Assembly: GCF_001907695.1 (NCBI RefSeq) | Contig: NZ_KV880638.1 | Location: 558,882 to 622,881, forward strand | Reading direction: 5' to 3' | Length of the DNA: 64,000 bases | Source of the DNA: Thalassospira sp. TSL5-1 | Lineage (GTDB): Bacteria; Pseudomonadota; Alphaproteobacteria; Rhodospirillales; Thalassospiraceae | Part shown: positions 51,513-59,668 of the stretch, in pieces | How the letters are laid out: the number at the start of each line of letters is the position of its first letter | Numbering within the stretch: position 1 is the first letter of the stretch | Translations under genes and position numbers: made by a program | Notes under the pieces: model-generated | What the model was told of the DNA's origin: nothing | The model's database searches: none | Seen by the model: the letters and a program-made list of their open reading frames with translations, nothing else

Positions 51513-51545
51513 CAGCCCCGCTGGTTATCTGGCGGGGCTGTTTTT
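51513..51545 (+). terminator. Rho-independent terminator of the importer operon
   Basis: CAGCCCCGC pairs perfectly with GCGGGGCTG around a 10-base loop, followed by TTTTT. It also lies at the stop of the convergent minus-strand gene. Confidence 0.9.
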
Positions 51546-52050
51546 ATGTGCTATTGCGTTTGTTTTGGGGTGGTTCGCCTGTTTTGGGTTTGGTTTGACG
51601 GGCGGGATCAAGTGCTGCCTCGGCGGCGTTCACCGCCGCGTCGAGCTTTTCGGCATCTTCCTTGGCTTTTTTGTCGGCCTGTTCCTGGGCGCGCGCCTTT
51701 GCATTTCGGTCTTCATCGGGATCGGACAGGGTTTCGTAAAATATCATTTCGGCCCGTGGATGGGTCAGCGCGAACCAGGCCGCGCGGATAAATTTTAATT
51801 TTACCCGGCGCTGGCGGCTTTCTCCGGCCCATTTTTCACGAAACAGTTCCATGTCGTCGCTGCGGGCAAAATGGATCACCATATCGACGTAAGGTGCACT
51901 TTGCCCGGATCGCGGTAGTTCAATATTGCGAATGCCCATGTTCCAGCGGTCATGGCGAATGTTTCGGTCCAGCCAGTCCAGGATGGGTTGGGCAGATTGT
52001 CTTTCGTGGATCACGATCCGAAAGGGAAAATTCCGAAGATCTTTTTGCAT
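51544..52050 (-). CDS. Uncharacterised protein with charged Ala/Lys-rich tail
   Basis: A 168-residue protein I do not recognise. The first 110 residues look globular (RIVIHERQSAQPILDWLDRN, IRNIELPRSGQSAPYVDMVI, LKFIRAAWFALTHPRAEMIF); the last 60 are low-complexity, rich in Ala, Lys, Glu and Asp, probably helical. No signal peptide or membrane segment. ATG chosen; a TTG lies five codons upstream. It overlaps the end of the importer terminator. Confidence 0.65.
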   Translation of the reverse strand: MQKDLRNFPFRIVIHERQSAQPILDWLDRNIRHDRWNMGIRNIELPRSGQSAPYVDMVIHFARSDDMELFREKWAGESRQRRVKLKFIRAAWFALTHPRAEMIFYETLSDPDEDRNAKARAQEQADKKAKEDAEKLDAAVNAAEAALDPARQTKPKTGEPPQNKRNST

Positions 52051-52176
52051 TTGTCCCCCAACCAAAGCCAGTGCCTGTGTCCTGATGATACATCAAGCTG
52101 TTTTAAAAGACGCATAAATCCGTTGTCTTATAATTAGAACAGTTTATCTGTTTAAAGGGGGAGCTGGCGTTAGGGG

Positions 52177-53482: not shown

Positions 53483-54094
53483 TCAGCTGGCACCCTGACC
53501 AAGATCGATCACGTAATCTTCGACCATGCCGCGTTTTTTGTGGACCTTGGTGAATTTGATCGGCCATTTGCTGTCGGGGGAATAAAACCAACTGCGGGTG
53601 TTTGAGGCATCTTTGCAAATGACTTCATAGGTCGGGATGGTTTTGGTGCCAACCGTGACCATTGCGGTTCCGACAACCCTACAATCGCGTGTTGCGGTCC
53701 ATGTGTCTTTGCCGTCTGTGCCTTCAATTTCAAAGGATTCCATCGCACCAGGCTTCAACGGCCAGATATCGCCTGTCTGGACAACTTTTTGTACGCCGTT
53801 TGATCCGGCGCAATTGGTCCATTTGGTGTCGGGGCTTATGAAGTCTGTGCCCTCTGATGTGCAGCCGGCATTGGGCCCTTCGGTAATTTCAAACATTAAA
53901 CGGTCGGCATTTTTGCCGGTAACGGTCAGTGTTTCTTTGTTGCCATTGCGGTAATAGGCATAGGTGTCACCGACGGCAAGGTCCGGTTTGGCCAGCGACA
54001 GCAGGCTGACCTGGCTGTTGCGCACAACATTGCTGCTTGTCTGACAGGCCGCCAGCCCCATCAGCATGGCAAAAGGAATAATCAGTTTTTTCAT
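53483..54094 (-). CDS. Lipoprotein of unknown function
   Basis: A 203-residue lipoprotein: signal MKKLIIPFAMLMGLAAC with a clean lipobox (LAAC). The mature part is beta-rich (VGDTYAYYRNGNKETLTVTG; DTWTATRDCRVVGTAMVTVG) and contains four further cysteines. The open frame begins seven codons upstream but the Met at the signal peptide is the obvious start. No family recognised; it is divergent from the PAS protein gene. Confidence 0.82.
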   Translation of the reverse strand: MKKLIIPFAMLMGLAACQTSSNVVRNSQVSLLSLAKPDLAVGDTYAYYRNGNKETLTVTGKNADRLMFEITEGPNAGCTSEGTDFISPDTKWTNCAGSNGVQKVVQTGDIWPLKPGAMESFEIEGTDGKDTWTATRDCRVVGTAMVTVGTKTIPTYEVICKDASNTRSWFYSPDSKWPIKFTKVHKKRGMVEDYVIDLGQGAS

Positions 54095-54194
54095 CAAAGT
54101 CTCCCTGGTGTTCAAAACCCGGCCTGCCTTGTCCCCAAATGCAGGCCACGCGGGTTTGCTCCCGGTTATTCAACGCGATTTTAACCTGGTGCAA

Positions 54195-54362: not shown

Positions 54363-54455
54363 ATGATCAAGAGTAAAATTTACGTTGGTATGATGTCGTG
54401 TTCGCGGTACACCTTATTCTTAATGGCAGGCATTGCCGGGGCCGCTATTGGCTGA
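54363..54455 (+). CDS. Possible 30-residue hydrophobic peptide
   Basis: ATG-initiated frame encoding a basic start (MIKSKIYVGMM) and a hydrophobic C-terminal half (LFLMAGIAGAAIG). The size and layout resemble small membrane peptides. AAGGGG lies 13 bases upstream, a long spacing. Expression is unproven. Confidence 0.25.
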   Translation: MIKSKIYVGMMSCSRYTLFLMAGIAGAAIG

Positions 54456-54481
54456 ATGAAAATAGAGACCAGGGAAGAAGC

Positions 54482-55015
54482 GTGACAGAAAAACGATCAC
54501 ATGTGCAGCCAACAGGCGTTGAACGCCATTTTGGTGCCGATGAACTGATTGTCAGCAAAACCGACCTGAAGGGCCGGATCACCTATGCCAATGATGTGTT
54601 CTTGCGTGTCGCCGATTACGCCGAGGAAGAACTTTTAGGGCAGCCCCACTCGATTATCCGTCATCCGGACATGCCGCGTTGCGTGTTTCAGTTGTTATGG
54701 TCTGAAATCGAAGCCGGGCGCGAGATTTTTGCCTATGTCGTCAATCTGGCAAAAAACGGGGATCATTACTGGGTTTATGCCCATGTAACGCCCAGCTTTG
54801 ACCCGCATGGAACCATCACGGGCTATCATTCCAACCGTCGTGTGCCAGAAGCAGGGGTGGTCGATAAAGTTGTCAAACCGCTTTATGCCGAATTGCGCAA
54901 AATCGAGGAAAGCCAGCCCAGCCGCAAGGACGGCATGAATATGGCGGCACGCGCAATGGCGCAAAAGGTCAAGGATCTGGGCCTTGATTACGACCAGTTT
55001 GTGCAAAGCCTGTAA
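54482..55015 (+). CDS. Aer-like PAS sensor protein without signalling domain
   Basis: A 177-residue cytoplasmic protein consisting of an Aer-type PAS domain (GRITYANDVFLRVADYAEEEL, SIIRHPDMPRCVF, KNGDHYWVYAHVTP, GYHSNRRVPE) and a short C-terminal helical tail. Aer PAS domains bind FAD and sense redox state for energy taxis. No HAMP, membrane or methyl-accepting part is present; a soluble chemoreceptor gene starts 25 bases downstream, so the pair probably works as a split Aer. GTG start, with GGGAAGAAGC upstream; an upstream in-frame ATG exists but gives no sensible sequence. Confidence 0.87.
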   Translation: MTEKRSHVQPTGVERHFGADELIVSKTDLKGRITYANDVFLRVADYAEEELLGQPHSIIRHPDMPRCVFQLLWSEIEAGREIFAYVVNLAKNGDHYWVYAHVTPSFDPHGTITGYHSNRRVPEAGVVDKVVKPLYAELRKIEESQPSRKDGMNMAARAMAQKVKDLGLDYDQFVQSL

Positions 55016-55040
55016 GTAACGTTAAAGCCGAGGTTAGAAG

Positions 55041-56219
55041 ATGTCCCTGTTTGGCGGGTCTACAAAGTCGGGAATTCAAAAGGCGCTGGAAGTGGTCGAG
55101 GCGGCGGCAAATGGCGACTATGAGCAGCGAATCACCCATGTTGACAGCCATCCGCAAATGCGTGACCTGTTTAATGCGATCAACCGGCTGATTGACCGTA
55201 ATGATGCGTTTTTGCGCGAAAGCGCCGCCTCGATGGCGGCGGTGGCCGAAAACCGGTATTACCGGCGCATCGTCGAAACCGGCCTTGTCGGGTCTTATTT
55301 GACGTCGGCACGCGAAATCAATGGTGCCACCAGCATGATCGAGCAGAAACTGGGCGGGTTCCAAAAGGTTGTCGATGATTTCCGCAGCGGTTCTTTTGGC
55401 GCGGTGGACCGCATTGCCGACGCATCGGTCGCGCTGGAAGGCGCATCGGATGATGCCAGCCGTATCGCCCAGGAAACCAGCAGCCGGTCAATGGCGGTGG
55501 CGGCGGCAGCCCGCCAGACAGCAGATAACGTATCGGGTGTTTCCGAAGCCTCCGAGGAACTGAACCATTCCATTCGCGATGTTAGCGAGCAGGCGCGGGA
55601 ATCGGTTGATATTGCGCACCGTGCCAATGGCCTGGCGCGCGAAACCGATGGCCGCATCGGCCAGCTTGAAACCGCCGCGGTCGAGATTGTCGAGGTTGTC
55701 AGCTTCATTCGTGATATTGCCGCCCAAACCAACCTTCTGGCCCTGAATGCCACCATCGAGGCCGCCCGCGCGGGCGAGGCGGGCAAAGGCTTTGCCGTGG
55801 TTGCCAACGAGGTCAAGGGGCTCGCCAATCAGACCAGCAAGGCCACCGAAAGCATCGAGGAAAAAGTTCAGGATATTCAAACCGCGATCGAGCTTTCGGT
55901 CGGATCAATTCGCGAGATTGCCGGGGTAATTGATGATCTTGCTGCGCGTTCGGACCTGATTTCAACCAATGTGCAGACACAAACGTCGCTTTCCAGTGAT
56001 ATGATCCACAATGTTGAACAGGCGTCGGGCGGGGCGCGCGAAGTGACCGATAATATTTCGGTTGTTTCTGATATGACGTCGCAAACCGGGCAGGCCGCCC
56101 AAACCACCCGCGAAATGGCAACCGATCTTGCCCGCCAGGCCGAAAGCCTGCGTAGCCAGCTTGGCAGTTTTCTCGATAATATTACAAAAGTACTGTATAC
56201 TTCAGAGCGTAAAAAATAA
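55041..56219 (+). CDS. Soluble methyl-accepting chemotaxis protein
   Basis: A 392-residue cytoplasmic chemoreceptor without membrane helices. The N-terminal 120 residues look like HAMP-type helices ([36 protein letters not shown]), the rest is the signalling coiled coil with the conserved hairpin tip [20 protein letters not shown] followed by [20 protein letters not shown]. It lacks a sensor, which the preceding PAS protein could provide. AGGTTAGAAG precedes the ATG. No che genes are in the window. Confidence 0.93.
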
Positions 56220-56281: not shown

Positions 56282-57394
56282 ATGACAATGCGGGTGTTTT
56301 TCAATGCACGTCATGACGCCCATGACGTTAAATCGGAGTTTTATCACGGCCATACGATCCCGCCGCTTGATGATCCACGGCGGATGGGCATCATTCGTGA
56401 TGCCCTGGCCCATAAAATTTCCGCCCGTCTTGTGGACCCCACCGATCATGGGATGGCCCCGATTTGCGCTGTGCATGATACGGGGTATCTTCAGTTTCTG
56501 GCCCATGCCTGGCACGACTGGCAAGAGGCCGGTTATGATGGCGATGCCATCCCCGCGATTTGGCCTGCGCGCTGCCTGAATGACGGTGATACAAATTTGT
56601 ATCAGCCTGCCGTCAAAAATGGTAACAGTGCCGCACAATCACCCGCGACAATTCATATCCTCAAAAAGCTGGGATATTATGCCTATGCCATTGATACCCC
56701 GATTGGCGAGGGTAGCTGGCAGGCCGCCTATTGGGGCGCACAAACTGCCATTTCGGCAGCCGACGCGGTATTGCAGGATGGTGAAGCCGCCTTCTGCCTG
56801 GGGCGTCCGGCGGGGCATCATGCCCATGCCGCACGCTATGGCGGATATTGCCTGTTAAACAATGCTGCCATTGCCGCGCAGCATATGCGGGCACAGGGCG
56901 TCGCACGCATTGCTATTCTGGATATTGACCAGGATCACGGCGATGGTACCCAGCAGATATTTTATCAGCGCAGTGATGTATTAACCGTATCCATCCATGC
57001 CCATCCGGATAGTCATTTTCCCTTTTTTACCGGCTATGCTCGTGAACAGGGGGCAGATGCAGGATATGGTGCCAATTTGAACCTTCCCCTTGCCGATGGC
57101 GTCGGGTTTGAAGGATTTGAGGCCGCGATGGCGCAGGCAGCGGCAAAAATTGCCCGTTTTAATGCCGACATGCTGATTGTATCGCTGGGTGTTAATGGCC
57201 ACGAATTTGAACCTTTTGGTCGCCTCGACCTGACGACAGCCGATTATGAAAAAATCGGCGGGCAGATTGCCCAAATTGGCCTTCGCACCCTGTTTGTCAT
57301 GGAAGGGGGCTATGCCCATGATGTGATCGGGCAAAATGTTGCGGCGGTACTGGCGGGGTATTTGGCGGGTGTTGGCGGTGCAGCCGAACGTTAA
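56282..57394 (+). CDS. Histone deacetylase-fold amidohydrolase with altered zinc-site residues
   Basis: A 370-residue member of the arginase/deacetylase fold (acetylpolyamine amidohydrolase and HDAC group). The His-His pair of the active site is intact (GRPAGHHAHAARYGG, His179/180), as is the Tyr of MEGGYAHD (Tyr344). But the usual DxDxHHG motif reads DIDQDHGDG: Asp216 is kept, while position 218, normally the zinc ligand His, is Asp; and the second Asp ligand, normally in SLGxD, is Asn305 (SLGVNGHEFEPF). The start is set at the Met before TMRVFFNARHD. Whether it still hydrolyses acetyl amides is open. It is convergent with the LysR gene. Confidence 0.85.
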   Translation: MTMRVFFNARHDAHDVKSEFYHGHTIPPLDDPRRMGIIRDALAHKISARLVDPTDHGMAPICAVHDTGYLQFLAHAWHDWQEAGYDGDAIPAIWPARCLNDGDTNLYQPAVKNGNSAAQSPATIHILKKLGYYAYAIDTPIGEGSWQAAYWGAQTAISAADAVLQDGEAAFCLGRPAGHHAHAARYGGYCLLNNAAIAAQHMRAQGVARIAILDIDQDHGDGTQQIFYQRSDVLTVSIHAHPDSHFPFFTGYAREQGADAGYGANLNLPLADGVGFEGFEAAMAQAAAKIARFNADMLIVSLGVNGHEFEPFGRLDLTTADYEKIGGQIAQIGLRTLFVMEGGYAHDVIGQNVAAVLAGYLAGVGGAAER

Positions 57395-57416: not shown

Positions 57417-58316
57417 TTATGACGGATCGGTTGGCGAAGCGGGGTAAATCTCCCGGACAATTTCCAGCCAGGCGCGGGCAGCGTGCGATAAAAAGCCGTT
57501 TTGCCGCCAGATCATCGCCATGTCCCATTGGGTGTCGGGTTCATTAAGCTCGATATAGCGCACGTTAGGATGCGGGCGTTGCCGGGCGATCATGCGGGGC
57601 AAAAAGCTGACCCCCAGATTGGCGGCAACCAGCTCGGTGATGAAATCGATCTGGCTGCTGCGTGCGGCAATGTCGGGTTCGATATTTTTGCGCCGTGCCG
57701 CGGTAATCAGCACACGGTTCAGGGCAAACCCCTTTTCAAACAGGATCAGCGCGGTATCGGCCAGGTCCTCAAACCTTATGCGGGTTTTATGGGCGGCCTC
57801 GTGCGTGGCCGGCAGCAGGGCGACAAGGGGTTCGCACCGGACAGGTTGAAAGGCAAAGCCGGCCATTGTTGGCAACAGTGATGCCCCCAGTTCGATATCG
57901 CCGCTTTCAAGCATTTCTTCTAATCTGGTACTGCCCTGTTCAACCAGGCGAATATCAATGCCGGGGAAGCGTTTGCGATAGATGGCAAAAACCGGGGCAA
58001 ACAGTGTGTTGCTGCCAATGGGGGGCAGCCCCAAATGCAGGGCCCCGCGTTTCAGGCCACGAATTTCATCCAGTTCGGCCAGCAGGTCTTCGCGTTCTGC
58101 CAGGATGCGCAGTGCGCGGGCATAAACAACTTCGCCTGCCGCCGTCATGCGGCTACTGTGGCCGATGCGCTCCAGCAATGGAATGCCAATTTCGTCTTCA
58201 AGCTGGCGCACGGCCTTGCTGATGGCGGATTGAGTCACGAAAACGGTTTTTGCCGCCTGCGAAAACCCGCCCTGGCGAACAACCTCGACAAAGGCGCGAA
58301 GGGTTCGGATATCCAT
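57417..58316 (-). CDS. LysR-family regulator, likely controlling the CidA/LrgB pair
   Basis: A 299-residue LysR regulator: LRAFVEVVRQGGFSQAAKTV and TQSAISKAVRQLEDEIG form the DNA-binding domain, with an effector domain from residue 90. It is divergent from the CidA-type gene across an 88-base gap, the arrangement of CidR with cidAB, so acetate- or overflow-linked control is a reasonable guess. Confidence 0.92.
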   Translation of the reverse strand: MDIRTLRAFVEVVRQGGFSQAAKTVFVTQSAISKAVRQLEDEIGIPLLERIGHSSRMTAAGEVVYARALRILAEREDLLAELDEIRGLKRGALHLGLPPIGSNTLFAPVFAIYRKRFPGIDIRLVEQGSTRLEEMLESGDIELGASLLPTMAGFAFQPVRCEPLVALLPATHEAAHKTRIRFEDLADTALILFEKGFALNRVLITAARRKNIEPDIAARSSQIDFITELVAANLGVSFLPRMIARQRPHPNVRYIELNEPDTQWDMAMIWRQNGFLSHAARAWLEIVREIYPASPTDPS

Positions 58317-58404
58317 AATATTCCTATTGGGAATAGATTTGAGTAAATCAATTCATTTTTATCATAAAATGGATGGTTCTATGCTGTGGGTCAAGGAGAA
58401 CACC

Positions 58405-58977
58405 ATGACCCATCGTTTAAACAGCTTTTTTACCCCCTTCAGGAAATCGGATTCCGGCACGGCCAATGCCACCAATGCCGTCAATGACGCCGGGCGTGCC
58501 GCGCCTGTATCCCGTTTGCACGTTACCGGTGGGGCGGCAGGTTGTGCCAGCCCGGCAGTGCGCCCGGTGCTGCCGCTGGCCGGTTTGTCGGTGCGGGGGC
58601 GATATGTGTTGCGCCACAGTCCGATCCTGCAAATCGCGGCGATTTTTGCCTTTTGGCTGTTGGGCGAAGCGATTGTCCGTTTTGCGGGCATTCCCGTGCC
58701 GGGCGGCATTATTGGCATGGTGATTGTGTTTGTCCTGCTGGCCAGCCGCCGGATCAGCCTGCACAGCATGCGCCGCGGCGCACAATGGTATCTGGCGGAA
58801 ATGCTGCTGTTTTTTATTCCGGCCGTTTTGGCGCTTTTGAACCATCATGAACTGTTTGGCCTTTTGGGGGCCAAGGTGTTGCTGGTGATTTTGGGCAGTA
58901 CGGCGTCTGTCATTGCGGTGACGGCGCTGGTGATGGACCTGTTTATGCGGTTTCGGGGGCGGCATGGTCTGGTTTGA
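58405..58977 (+). CDS. CidA/LrgA-family holin-like membrane protein with N-terminal extension
   Basis: A 190-residue protein whose last 120 residues fit CidA/LrgA: four helices with LLGEAIVRFAGIPVPGGIIG, the family PxPGxxxGM signature. About 65 residues precede this, low-complexity and rich in Ala, Gly, Ser and Thr, and they are absent from standard CidA (about 120-130 residues). The ATG with AAGGAG 6 bases upstream supports the long form. The downstream lrgB-type gene overlaps its end by 14 bases. Such pairs are implicated in murein hydrolase control or in pyruvate/acetate transport. Confidence 0.88.
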   Translation: MTHRLNSFFTPFRKSDSGTANATNAVNDAGRAAPVSRLHVTGGAAGCASPAVRPVLPLAGLSVRGRYVLRHSPILQIAAIFAFWLLGEAIVRFAGIPVPGGIIGMVIVFVLLASRRISLHSMRRGAQWYLAEMLLFFIPAVLALLNHHELFGLLGAKVLLVILGSTASVIAVTALVMDLFMRFRGRHGLV

Positions 58978-59668
58978 AAACCCGGTGGTGCAGGGTGTTT
59001 TCTGGTCGTTTGCCACCATTGGATTTTATCTGGTCGCGCGCAAGCTGCACCGGCGCTGGCAACATGGCTGGTTAACCCCGCTTTTGATCACACCGGTAAT
59101 TTTGATGGCGCTGGCCTTGCTGCTGCATGAAAATTACAGCGATTATATTCGCGGAACCGGCTGGCTGGTGACGCTGCTGGGGCCGACAATGGTGGCCTTT
59201 GCCATCCCGATTTATGAACAGCGCAAATTCATTTTGCGCCACTGGCCGGTCCTGGCGGTGGGGGCAGTGGCCGGGAGTGCCACGGCCATGATCACCGGCT
59301 GGTGCCTGGCAACATTTTTGGGGCTGGATGGGGCCTTGCGGTTAAGTTTGCTGCCCCGATCCATCAGCACGCCTTTTGCAATGGAGGTTTCGGGCGATAT
59401 CGGCGGTATCCCGGATTTAACGGCTGTTTTTGTCGTGATTACCGGTGTCTTGGGGGCCGTTTTGGGTGAAATCATGCTGGCCCGCCTGCCGGTAAGCTCC
59501 AGCCTGGCGCGCGGTGCGGCGCTGGGGATGGGCGCACATGGCGCGGGTACGGCCAAGGCCCATGAAATTGGCACCGAGGAAGGATCAGTCGCCGGTTTGA
59601 TCATGGTGCTGGTTGGTCTTTTGAATGTACTGGTCGCACCGGCGATTGCGCTGTTTTTTCGCGGGTAA
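58964..59668 (+). CDS. LrgB/CidB-family membrane protein
   Basis: A 234-residue polytopic protein: TGWLVTLLGPTMVAFAIPIYEQ, LLPRSISTPFAMEVSGDIGG and GMGAHGAGTAKAHEIG are clear LrgB marks. It overlaps the CidA-type gene and forms a two-gene operon under the divergent LysR gene. It ends 11 bases from the convergent LysR gene. Confidence 0.93.
   Translation: MVWFENPVVQGVFWSFATIGFYLVARKLHRRWQHGWLTPLLITPVILMALALLLHENYSDYIRGTGWLVTLLGPTMVAFAIPIYEQRKFILRHWPVLAVGAVAGSATAMITGWCLATFLGLDGALRLSLLPRSISTPFAMEVSGDIGGIPDLTAVFVVITGVLGAVLGEIMLARLPVSSSLARGAALGMGAHGAGTAKAHEIGTEEGSVAGLIMVLVGLLNVLVAPAIALFFRG

What the first reader, a model, noticed from the sequence alone, without database searches (positions are those of the whole stretch)
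56282..57394. HDAC-fold enzyme with two of three zinc ligands replaced
The fold's zinc is normally held by Asp-x-His and a distant Asp. Here these read Asp216-Gln-Asp218 and Asn305, while His179/180 and Tyr344, which act on substrate, are kept. DNA codons are unambiguous (GAC CAG GAT CAC; GGT GTT AAT GGC). Retained catalytic residues with a rewired metal site point to a different metal, a new reaction, or a binding role.
Basis: partly seen in the sequence, partly recalled or inferred. Interest (0 to 1): 0.65.

Follow-up and report, generated by a model that had tools for sequence, protein, structure and literature searches.

The report
HDAC-fold protein with rebuilt metal site
Five related species of the marine bacterium Thalassospira carry an acetylpolyamine-deacetylase-like protein in which two of the three residues that should hold the catalytic zinc were swapped (His to Asp, Asp to Asn) and then kept under selection, so it is probably an enzyme with a changed metal site, possibly a non-catalytic binder, and not a decayed gene.

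Summary
The ORF (shared start probably 56288) is an HDAC-fold protein (PF00850) closest to acetylpolyamine amidohydrolases (APAHs). It aligns without gaps at the metal site: Asp-x-His reads D216-Q-D218, the distant Asp is N305, and the tandem His and catalytic Tyr are kept. It is no sequencing error: all five species of one Thalassospira clade carry D..D..N. The other 24 genomes of the genus have a 57-61% homologue, canonical in all 18 sequences read and at the same chromosomal place in all eight loci compared. The change arose once, in place. dN/dS in the clade is 0.15: constrained, but about three times less than neighbouring genes. His-to-Asp alone occurs elsewhere (Streptosporangiaceae beside a PotABCD-type transporter, Mesorhizobium, Bacteroidales), with the third Asp kept. 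Most likely: a metal-dependent amidohydrolase with an all-oxygen Asp-Asp-Asn site and a non-polyamine substrate (about 0.5); rivals are a ligand-binding pseudoenzyme (0.3) and an ordinary zinc APAH (0.15). Sequence cannot decide. New variant of a known kind.

The parts
56282..57394 (+). HDAC-fold (PF00850), APAH-like protein, 370 aa from 56282; start shared with homologues probably 56288 (MRVFF)
   Evidence: model pLDDT 87, Z 55 to Marinobacter APAH 6phr
56927..56929 (+). Asp216, first metal-ligand position, kept
56933..56935 (+). Asp218 at the position of the zinc-binding His (M. ramosa APAH His197)
57194..57196 (+). Asn305 at the position of the third zinc ligand (M. ramosa APAH Asp284)
56942..56944 (+). 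Asp221, changed from Asn (M. ramosa Asn200); partner of the general-base His180, third clade-fixed active-site change
   Evidence: role from PMC11532494
56816..56821 (+). tandem catalytic histidines His179-His180, kept
57311..57313 (+). catalytic Tyr344 (EGGY), kept
56558..56644 (+). residues 93-121: L2/polyamine-specificity loop region, disordered in the model and variable in length only in this clade
   Evidence: pLDDT under 50; alignment
55041..56219 (+). methyl-accepting chemotaxis protein, same strand, 62-68 bases upstream; with the PAS protein at 54398-55015 a conserved neighbour (context, not part of the protein)

Best explanation
A clade of Thalassospira inherited a canonical APAH-like zinc amidohydrolase and rebuilt its metal site in place. 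His became Asp218 and the distant Asp became Asn305, so the three protein ligands Asp-Asp-Asn keep the net charge of Asp-His-Asp but offer only oxygen (or amide) donors, which should weaken zinc and favour a harder divalent ion such as Mn2+, Fe2+ or Mg2+. The promoted-water machinery is kept (His179-Asp214 and His180-Asp221 dyads, Tyr344), so the protein most likely still hydrolyses an amide, but of a substrate other than acetylpolyamines, because the polyamine-contact and dimer-loop residues are lost. Shown: the residues, the fold, single origin, synteny, purifying selection, loss of polyamine contacts. Inferred: that a metal is bound, which one, that catalysis occurs, and the substrate.
For: Fixed D..D..N in 5 of 5 clade species, canonical D-x-H..D in the 18 sister sequences compared; same locus order in all 12 loci compared, including eight canonical ones; neighbour tree puts canonical G020 as sister of the clade, so the state is derived once. 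dN/dS 0.147 over tree dS about 2.5; with no constraint two Asp/Asn codons would both keep their residue with probability about 1e-4 or less. All eight catalytic positions are either kept or replaced by a metal-ligand- or dyad-competent residue (D, N, D), not by Ala or Gly. His-to-Asp occurs separately in Streptosporangiaceae directly after a PotA/SBP/permease ABC transporter (TIGR01187 potA over cut-off) and in Mesorhizobium beside aldehyde dehydrogenase, FAD oxidoreductase and class-III aminotransferase genes, contexts that fit a working amidohydrolase. Polyamine contacts changed: F27 to L, E106 to L/V, D163 to A; L2 loop disordered (roles from PMC11532494).
Against: No metal or activity data. 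dN/dS is about three times that of neighbouring genes in the same genomes, and 75 of 219 residues invariant in the canonical sequences have changed somewhere in the clade, which relaxed constraint on a non-catalytic protein would also give. The other His-to-Asp lineages keep the third Asp, so D-D-N itself has no independent repeat. Enrichment of clade-fixed changes at catalytic residues is borderline (3 of 8, p 0.05). AlphaFold places no metal.
Confidence: 0.5

Rival explanations
1. A pseudoenzyme: the site no longer holds a catalytic metal, and the protein binds an amide or acetylated ligand (or a partner protein) without turning it over, perhaps feeding the adjacent PAS/chemoreceptor pair.
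For: Two of three metal ligands lost; faster evolution than neighbours (dN/dS 0.147 against 0.04-0.05 for the MCP, LysR and PuuD genes); polyamine-specific loop degenerate; gene sits directly downstream of a PAS and an MCP gene in all genomes compared. HDAC10's C-terminal pseudo-deacetylase domain is a precedent (PMC11532494).
Against: Both catalytic His, both dyad acids and the Tyr are kept in all five species although dS is high; the replacements are metal-capable; the MCP neighbourhood is shared with the canonical enzymes, so it says nothing special about this variant.
Confidence: 0.3
2. An ordinary zinc APAH: Asp-Asp-Asn still binds zinc well enough and the protein does the same reaction as the canonical orthologue.
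For: Same locus, fold and residual catalytic residues; His-to-Asp variants next to a polyamine-type ABC transporter in Streptosporangiaceae; HDAC-fold enzymes are known to accept several metals (own knowledge).
Against: Polyamine-contact and loop residues changed, three coordinated active-site replacements, and a long branch to the clade (0.32 against 0.12 for the neighbour genes).
Confidence: 0.15
3. A decaying gene or an alignment/assembly artefact.
For: Raised dN/dS compared with neighbours.
Against: Intact ORF in five genomes, dN/dS far below 1, D..D..N fixed, gap-free alignment.
Confidence: 0.02

Closest known systems
Bacterial acetylpolyamine amidohydrolases (cluster 4; M. ramosa APAH 3q9b/3q9c, Marinobacter msAPAH 6phr, Pseudomonas ApaH 9gkz)
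   Same: Fold (Z 54-55, 1.5-1.6 A over 341-345 residues), 38-41% identity, tandem His, Tyr, position of the L2 loop
   Different: Two zinc ligands and the second dyad partner replaced; F27, E106 and D163 equivalents lost; L2 loop longer, disordered and variable
Canonical Thalassospira orthologue (57-61% identity)
   Same: Same chromosomal place and neighbours, full-length alignment
   Different: Keeps DYHHGNG and GVD; short L2 loop; slower evolution
Streptosporangiaceae / Bacteroidales / Mesorhizobium HDAC-fold proteins with D-x-D-H-G-N-G
   Same: His-to-Asp at the same zinc ligand
   Different: Third ligand Asp and dyad Asn kept; only about 30-48% identity over the matched parts; tree groups them elsewhere
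HDAC10 C-terminal pseudo-deacetylase domain; class IIa HDACs
   Same: HDAC fold with altered catalytic residues (PMC11532494)
   Different: Not compared by sequence here; class IIa loses the Tyr, which is kept here, and keeps its zinc ligands (own knowledge)

Membership tests
Classical Zn2+-dependent deacylases (HDAC family, PF00850) | arginase/deacetylase fold and family profile | tested here: met
   PF00850 227 bits against cut-off 27.9; Z 42-55 to HDAC-family structures
Classical Zn2+-dependent deacylases (HDAC family, PF00850) | Asp-x-His plus distant Asp zinc triad | tested here: not met
   D216-Q-D218 and N305
Classical Zn2+-dependent deacylases (HDAC family, PF00850) | tandem His with acid/amide partners and catalytic Tyr | tested here: met
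   H179-H180, D214, D221, Y344 in all five species
Classical Zn2+-dependent deacylases (HDAC family, PF00850) | bound catalytic zinc and deacylase activity | not testable with these tools
   no metal placement or assay possible
Acetylpolyamine amidohydrolases (cluster 4) | closest sequence and structural relatives are APAHs | tested here: met
   best PDB matches by sequence and fold are all APAHs
Acetylpolyamine amidohydrolases (cluster 4) | ordered L2/PSL loop with polyamine-contact and dimer residues (F27, R95, E106, D163 of the M. ramosa/Pseudomonas enzymes) | tested here: not met
   L, variable, L/V and A at these positions; loop pLDDT under 50
Acetylpolyamine amidohydrolases (cluster 4) | head-to-head dimer and acetylpolyamine hydrolysis | not testable with these tools
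   needs protein
HDAC-fold pseudoenzymes | absence of catalytic metal and activity | not testable with these tools
   two ligands replaced, but by residues able to bind metal
HDAC-fold pseudoenzymes | loss of other catalytic residues | tested here: not met
   His, dyad and Tyr residues kept

The most novel reading that the evidence does not exclude
The clade uses an all-oxygen Asp-Asp-Asn site with a non-zinc metal to hydrolyse a substrate no classical deacylase is known to use: a natural metal switch inside the HDAC fold that can be followed against its zinc orthologue at the same locus.
Probability: 0.3. Interest if true: 0.75.

Novelty: new variant of a known kind. Interest (0 to 1): 0.5.

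Why it matters
The recent survey of bacterial classical deacylases describes their active site as totally conserved (PMC11532494). A clade in which two zinc ligands were exchanged at a fixed chromosomal place, with the canonical enzyme in sister species, gives a paired natural experiment on how a metal site can be rewired and whether HDAC-type chemistry needs zinc or histidine ligation at all. If it is a pseudoenzyme, it is a well-placed case of conversion with its active ancestor's orthologues still at hand.

Tried and rejected
A ligand shift to His219: rejected, gap-free alignment with a His invariant in the comparison alignments. DQDHG hits in G021 and G019: not HDACs. Four further D-x-D-H-G pattern hits in 385 class-level genomes: not HDACs. 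Viral contigs: the first scan found no relative, the second found 27 relatives, none with a D-x-D among those inspected. Plasmid search: only relatives under 60% identity, motifs not read. Relatives of the Streptosporangium genome: only 2 of 31 hold the D-x-D gene, so it is patchy there. NCBIfam gives no specific family for any of these HDACs. Promoter/terminator scan near the gene was not clearly above chance. Papers on HDAC metal-ligand mutants: no open-access test of His-to-Asp or Asp-to-Asn found.

Full report
Observation. Window 56282-57394 (+) encodes a 370-residue protein matching PF00850 (3.8e-67) and, by sequence, acetylpolyamine amidohydrolases best of all solved structures (9gkz, 6phr, 3q9b; about 1e-78). 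In the gap-free alignment to APAHs, D216-Q-D218-H219 falls on Asp-x-His-His and N305 on the distant zinc Asp; H219 occupies the position of the second His of HHG and so is not a displaced ligand. The conserved start is the Met of MRVFF at 56288.

Conservation and origin. The genus is Thalassospira. Of 29 genomes, five (own, G023, G011, G026, G027; 70-87% identity) have DQDHGDGTQ and LGVN; the other 24 have a best homologue of 57-61% identity, and the 18 of these whose sequences were compared are all DYHHGNG and LGVD. The gene order BMP-DUF-PAS-MCP-HDAC-LysR-PuuD is shared by the 12 loci compared, eight of them canonical, so these are positional orthologues. A tree of two neighbour genes places canonical G020 as sister of the five: the D-D-N state is derived and arose once.

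Selection. Mean dN/dS is 0.147 in the clade, 0.099 among canonical copies, and 0.04-0.05 for the MCP, LysR and PuuD genes of the same clade genomes. The tree dS is about 2.5; without constraint, two Asp/Asn codons would both keep their residue in all five with probability about 1e-4 or lower (rough, NG86 distances on a fixed tree). The gene is therefore maintained, but evolves faster than its surroundings.

What else changed. Twenty-five sites are fixed differently in the two groups. They include 217, 218, 221 and 305 in the active site. Asp221 replaces the Asn that orients the general-base His; Asp there is normal in HDAC8 (PMC11532494). Residues that contact polyamines or the dimer partner in the M. 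ramosa and Pseudomonas enzymes (F27, R95, E106, D163; PMC11532494) are L, variable, L/V and A. The L2/polyamine-specificity loop region is longer, of different length in the species, and disordered in the model (residues 93-121 under pLDDT 50). The rest of the model is confident (mean 87) and superposes on msAPAH at Z 55, 1.5 A over 345 residues.

Elsewhere. An exact scan of the genome-contig collection (84,980 species) for D-x-D-H-G-[ND]-G-T-Q gave 43 stretches, 13 in HDAC-fold ORFs: three Thalassospira, seven Streptosporangiaceae, one Bacteroidales, one Mesorhizobium and one proteobacterial MAG. In all ten non-Thalassospira cases the third Asp is kept. For scale, the canonical pattern hit 89 times in 96 alphaproteobacterial genomes, while the D-x-D pattern hit a real HDAC once (the window) in 385. 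In Streptosporangium the gene directly follows a PotA-type ATPase, solute-binding protein and permease, with a similar order in three further loci by ORF inspection; in Mesorhizobium it lies beside aldehyde dehydrogenase, FAD oxidoreductase and class-III aminotransferase genes. These contexts suggest that His-to-Asp need not end catalysis, though no activity is known for any of them.

Mechanism. I think an amidohydrolase with an Asp-Asp-Asn site is most likely (0.5). The replacement keeps the net charge of the ligand set, all other catalytic residues are kept, and the new residues can still bind a metal. A harder ion than zinc is a chemical inference, not a result. The substrate is probably not an acetylpolyamine. 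A pseudoenzyme (0.3) is the strongest rival; its support is the faster evolution and the lost loop. Unchanged zinc APAH activity is possible (0.15).

Known work. PMC11532494 calls the bacterial active site totally conserved. One sentence there says the zinc His is replaced by Asn in cluster 3 enzymes, but its figure legend puts an Asn of that number in the charge-relay position, so I do not count it as a precedent; the sequence was not fetched because one of the enzymes is a secreted virulence effector. No solved structure with D-x-D appeared among the alignments shown for the motif (five alignments read).

Limits. Only 18 of the 24 canonical sequences and 12 loci were read in full; pattern scans miss proteins without T-Q; no metal was placed; literature searched is open access only.

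Noticed in passing
L045:491-5771, also L051, L074, L081: HDAC-fold proteins with Asp at the zinc-His position directly downstream of a PotABCD-like ABC transporter in Streptosporangiaceae; EGCY instead of EGGY.
   Followed up: partly
window 57417-59668: A LysR-LrgA-LrgB cassette lies between the HDAC gene and the LysR-PuuD pair in four of five clade genomes; absent in G026 and in the eight canonical loci compared.
   Followed up: partly
window 54398-56219: A PAS-only protein and a separate MCP gene precede the HDAC gene in every Thalassospira locus compared; possible operon, link to chemotaxis untested.
   Followed up: partly
L052:2065-3081: Bacteroidales D-x-D HDAC flanked by radical-SAM/SPASM and Gfo/Idh/MocA genes.
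   Followed up: no
PMC11532494, section 12 (paper, not a locus): Text and figure legend disagree on whether an Asn replaces the zinc His or is the charge-relay Asn in cluster 3 enzymes.
   Followed up: partly
window 51544-52065 (-) and 53483-54115 (-): Two ORFs conserved in several Thalassospira loci without any Pfam match.
   Followed up: no
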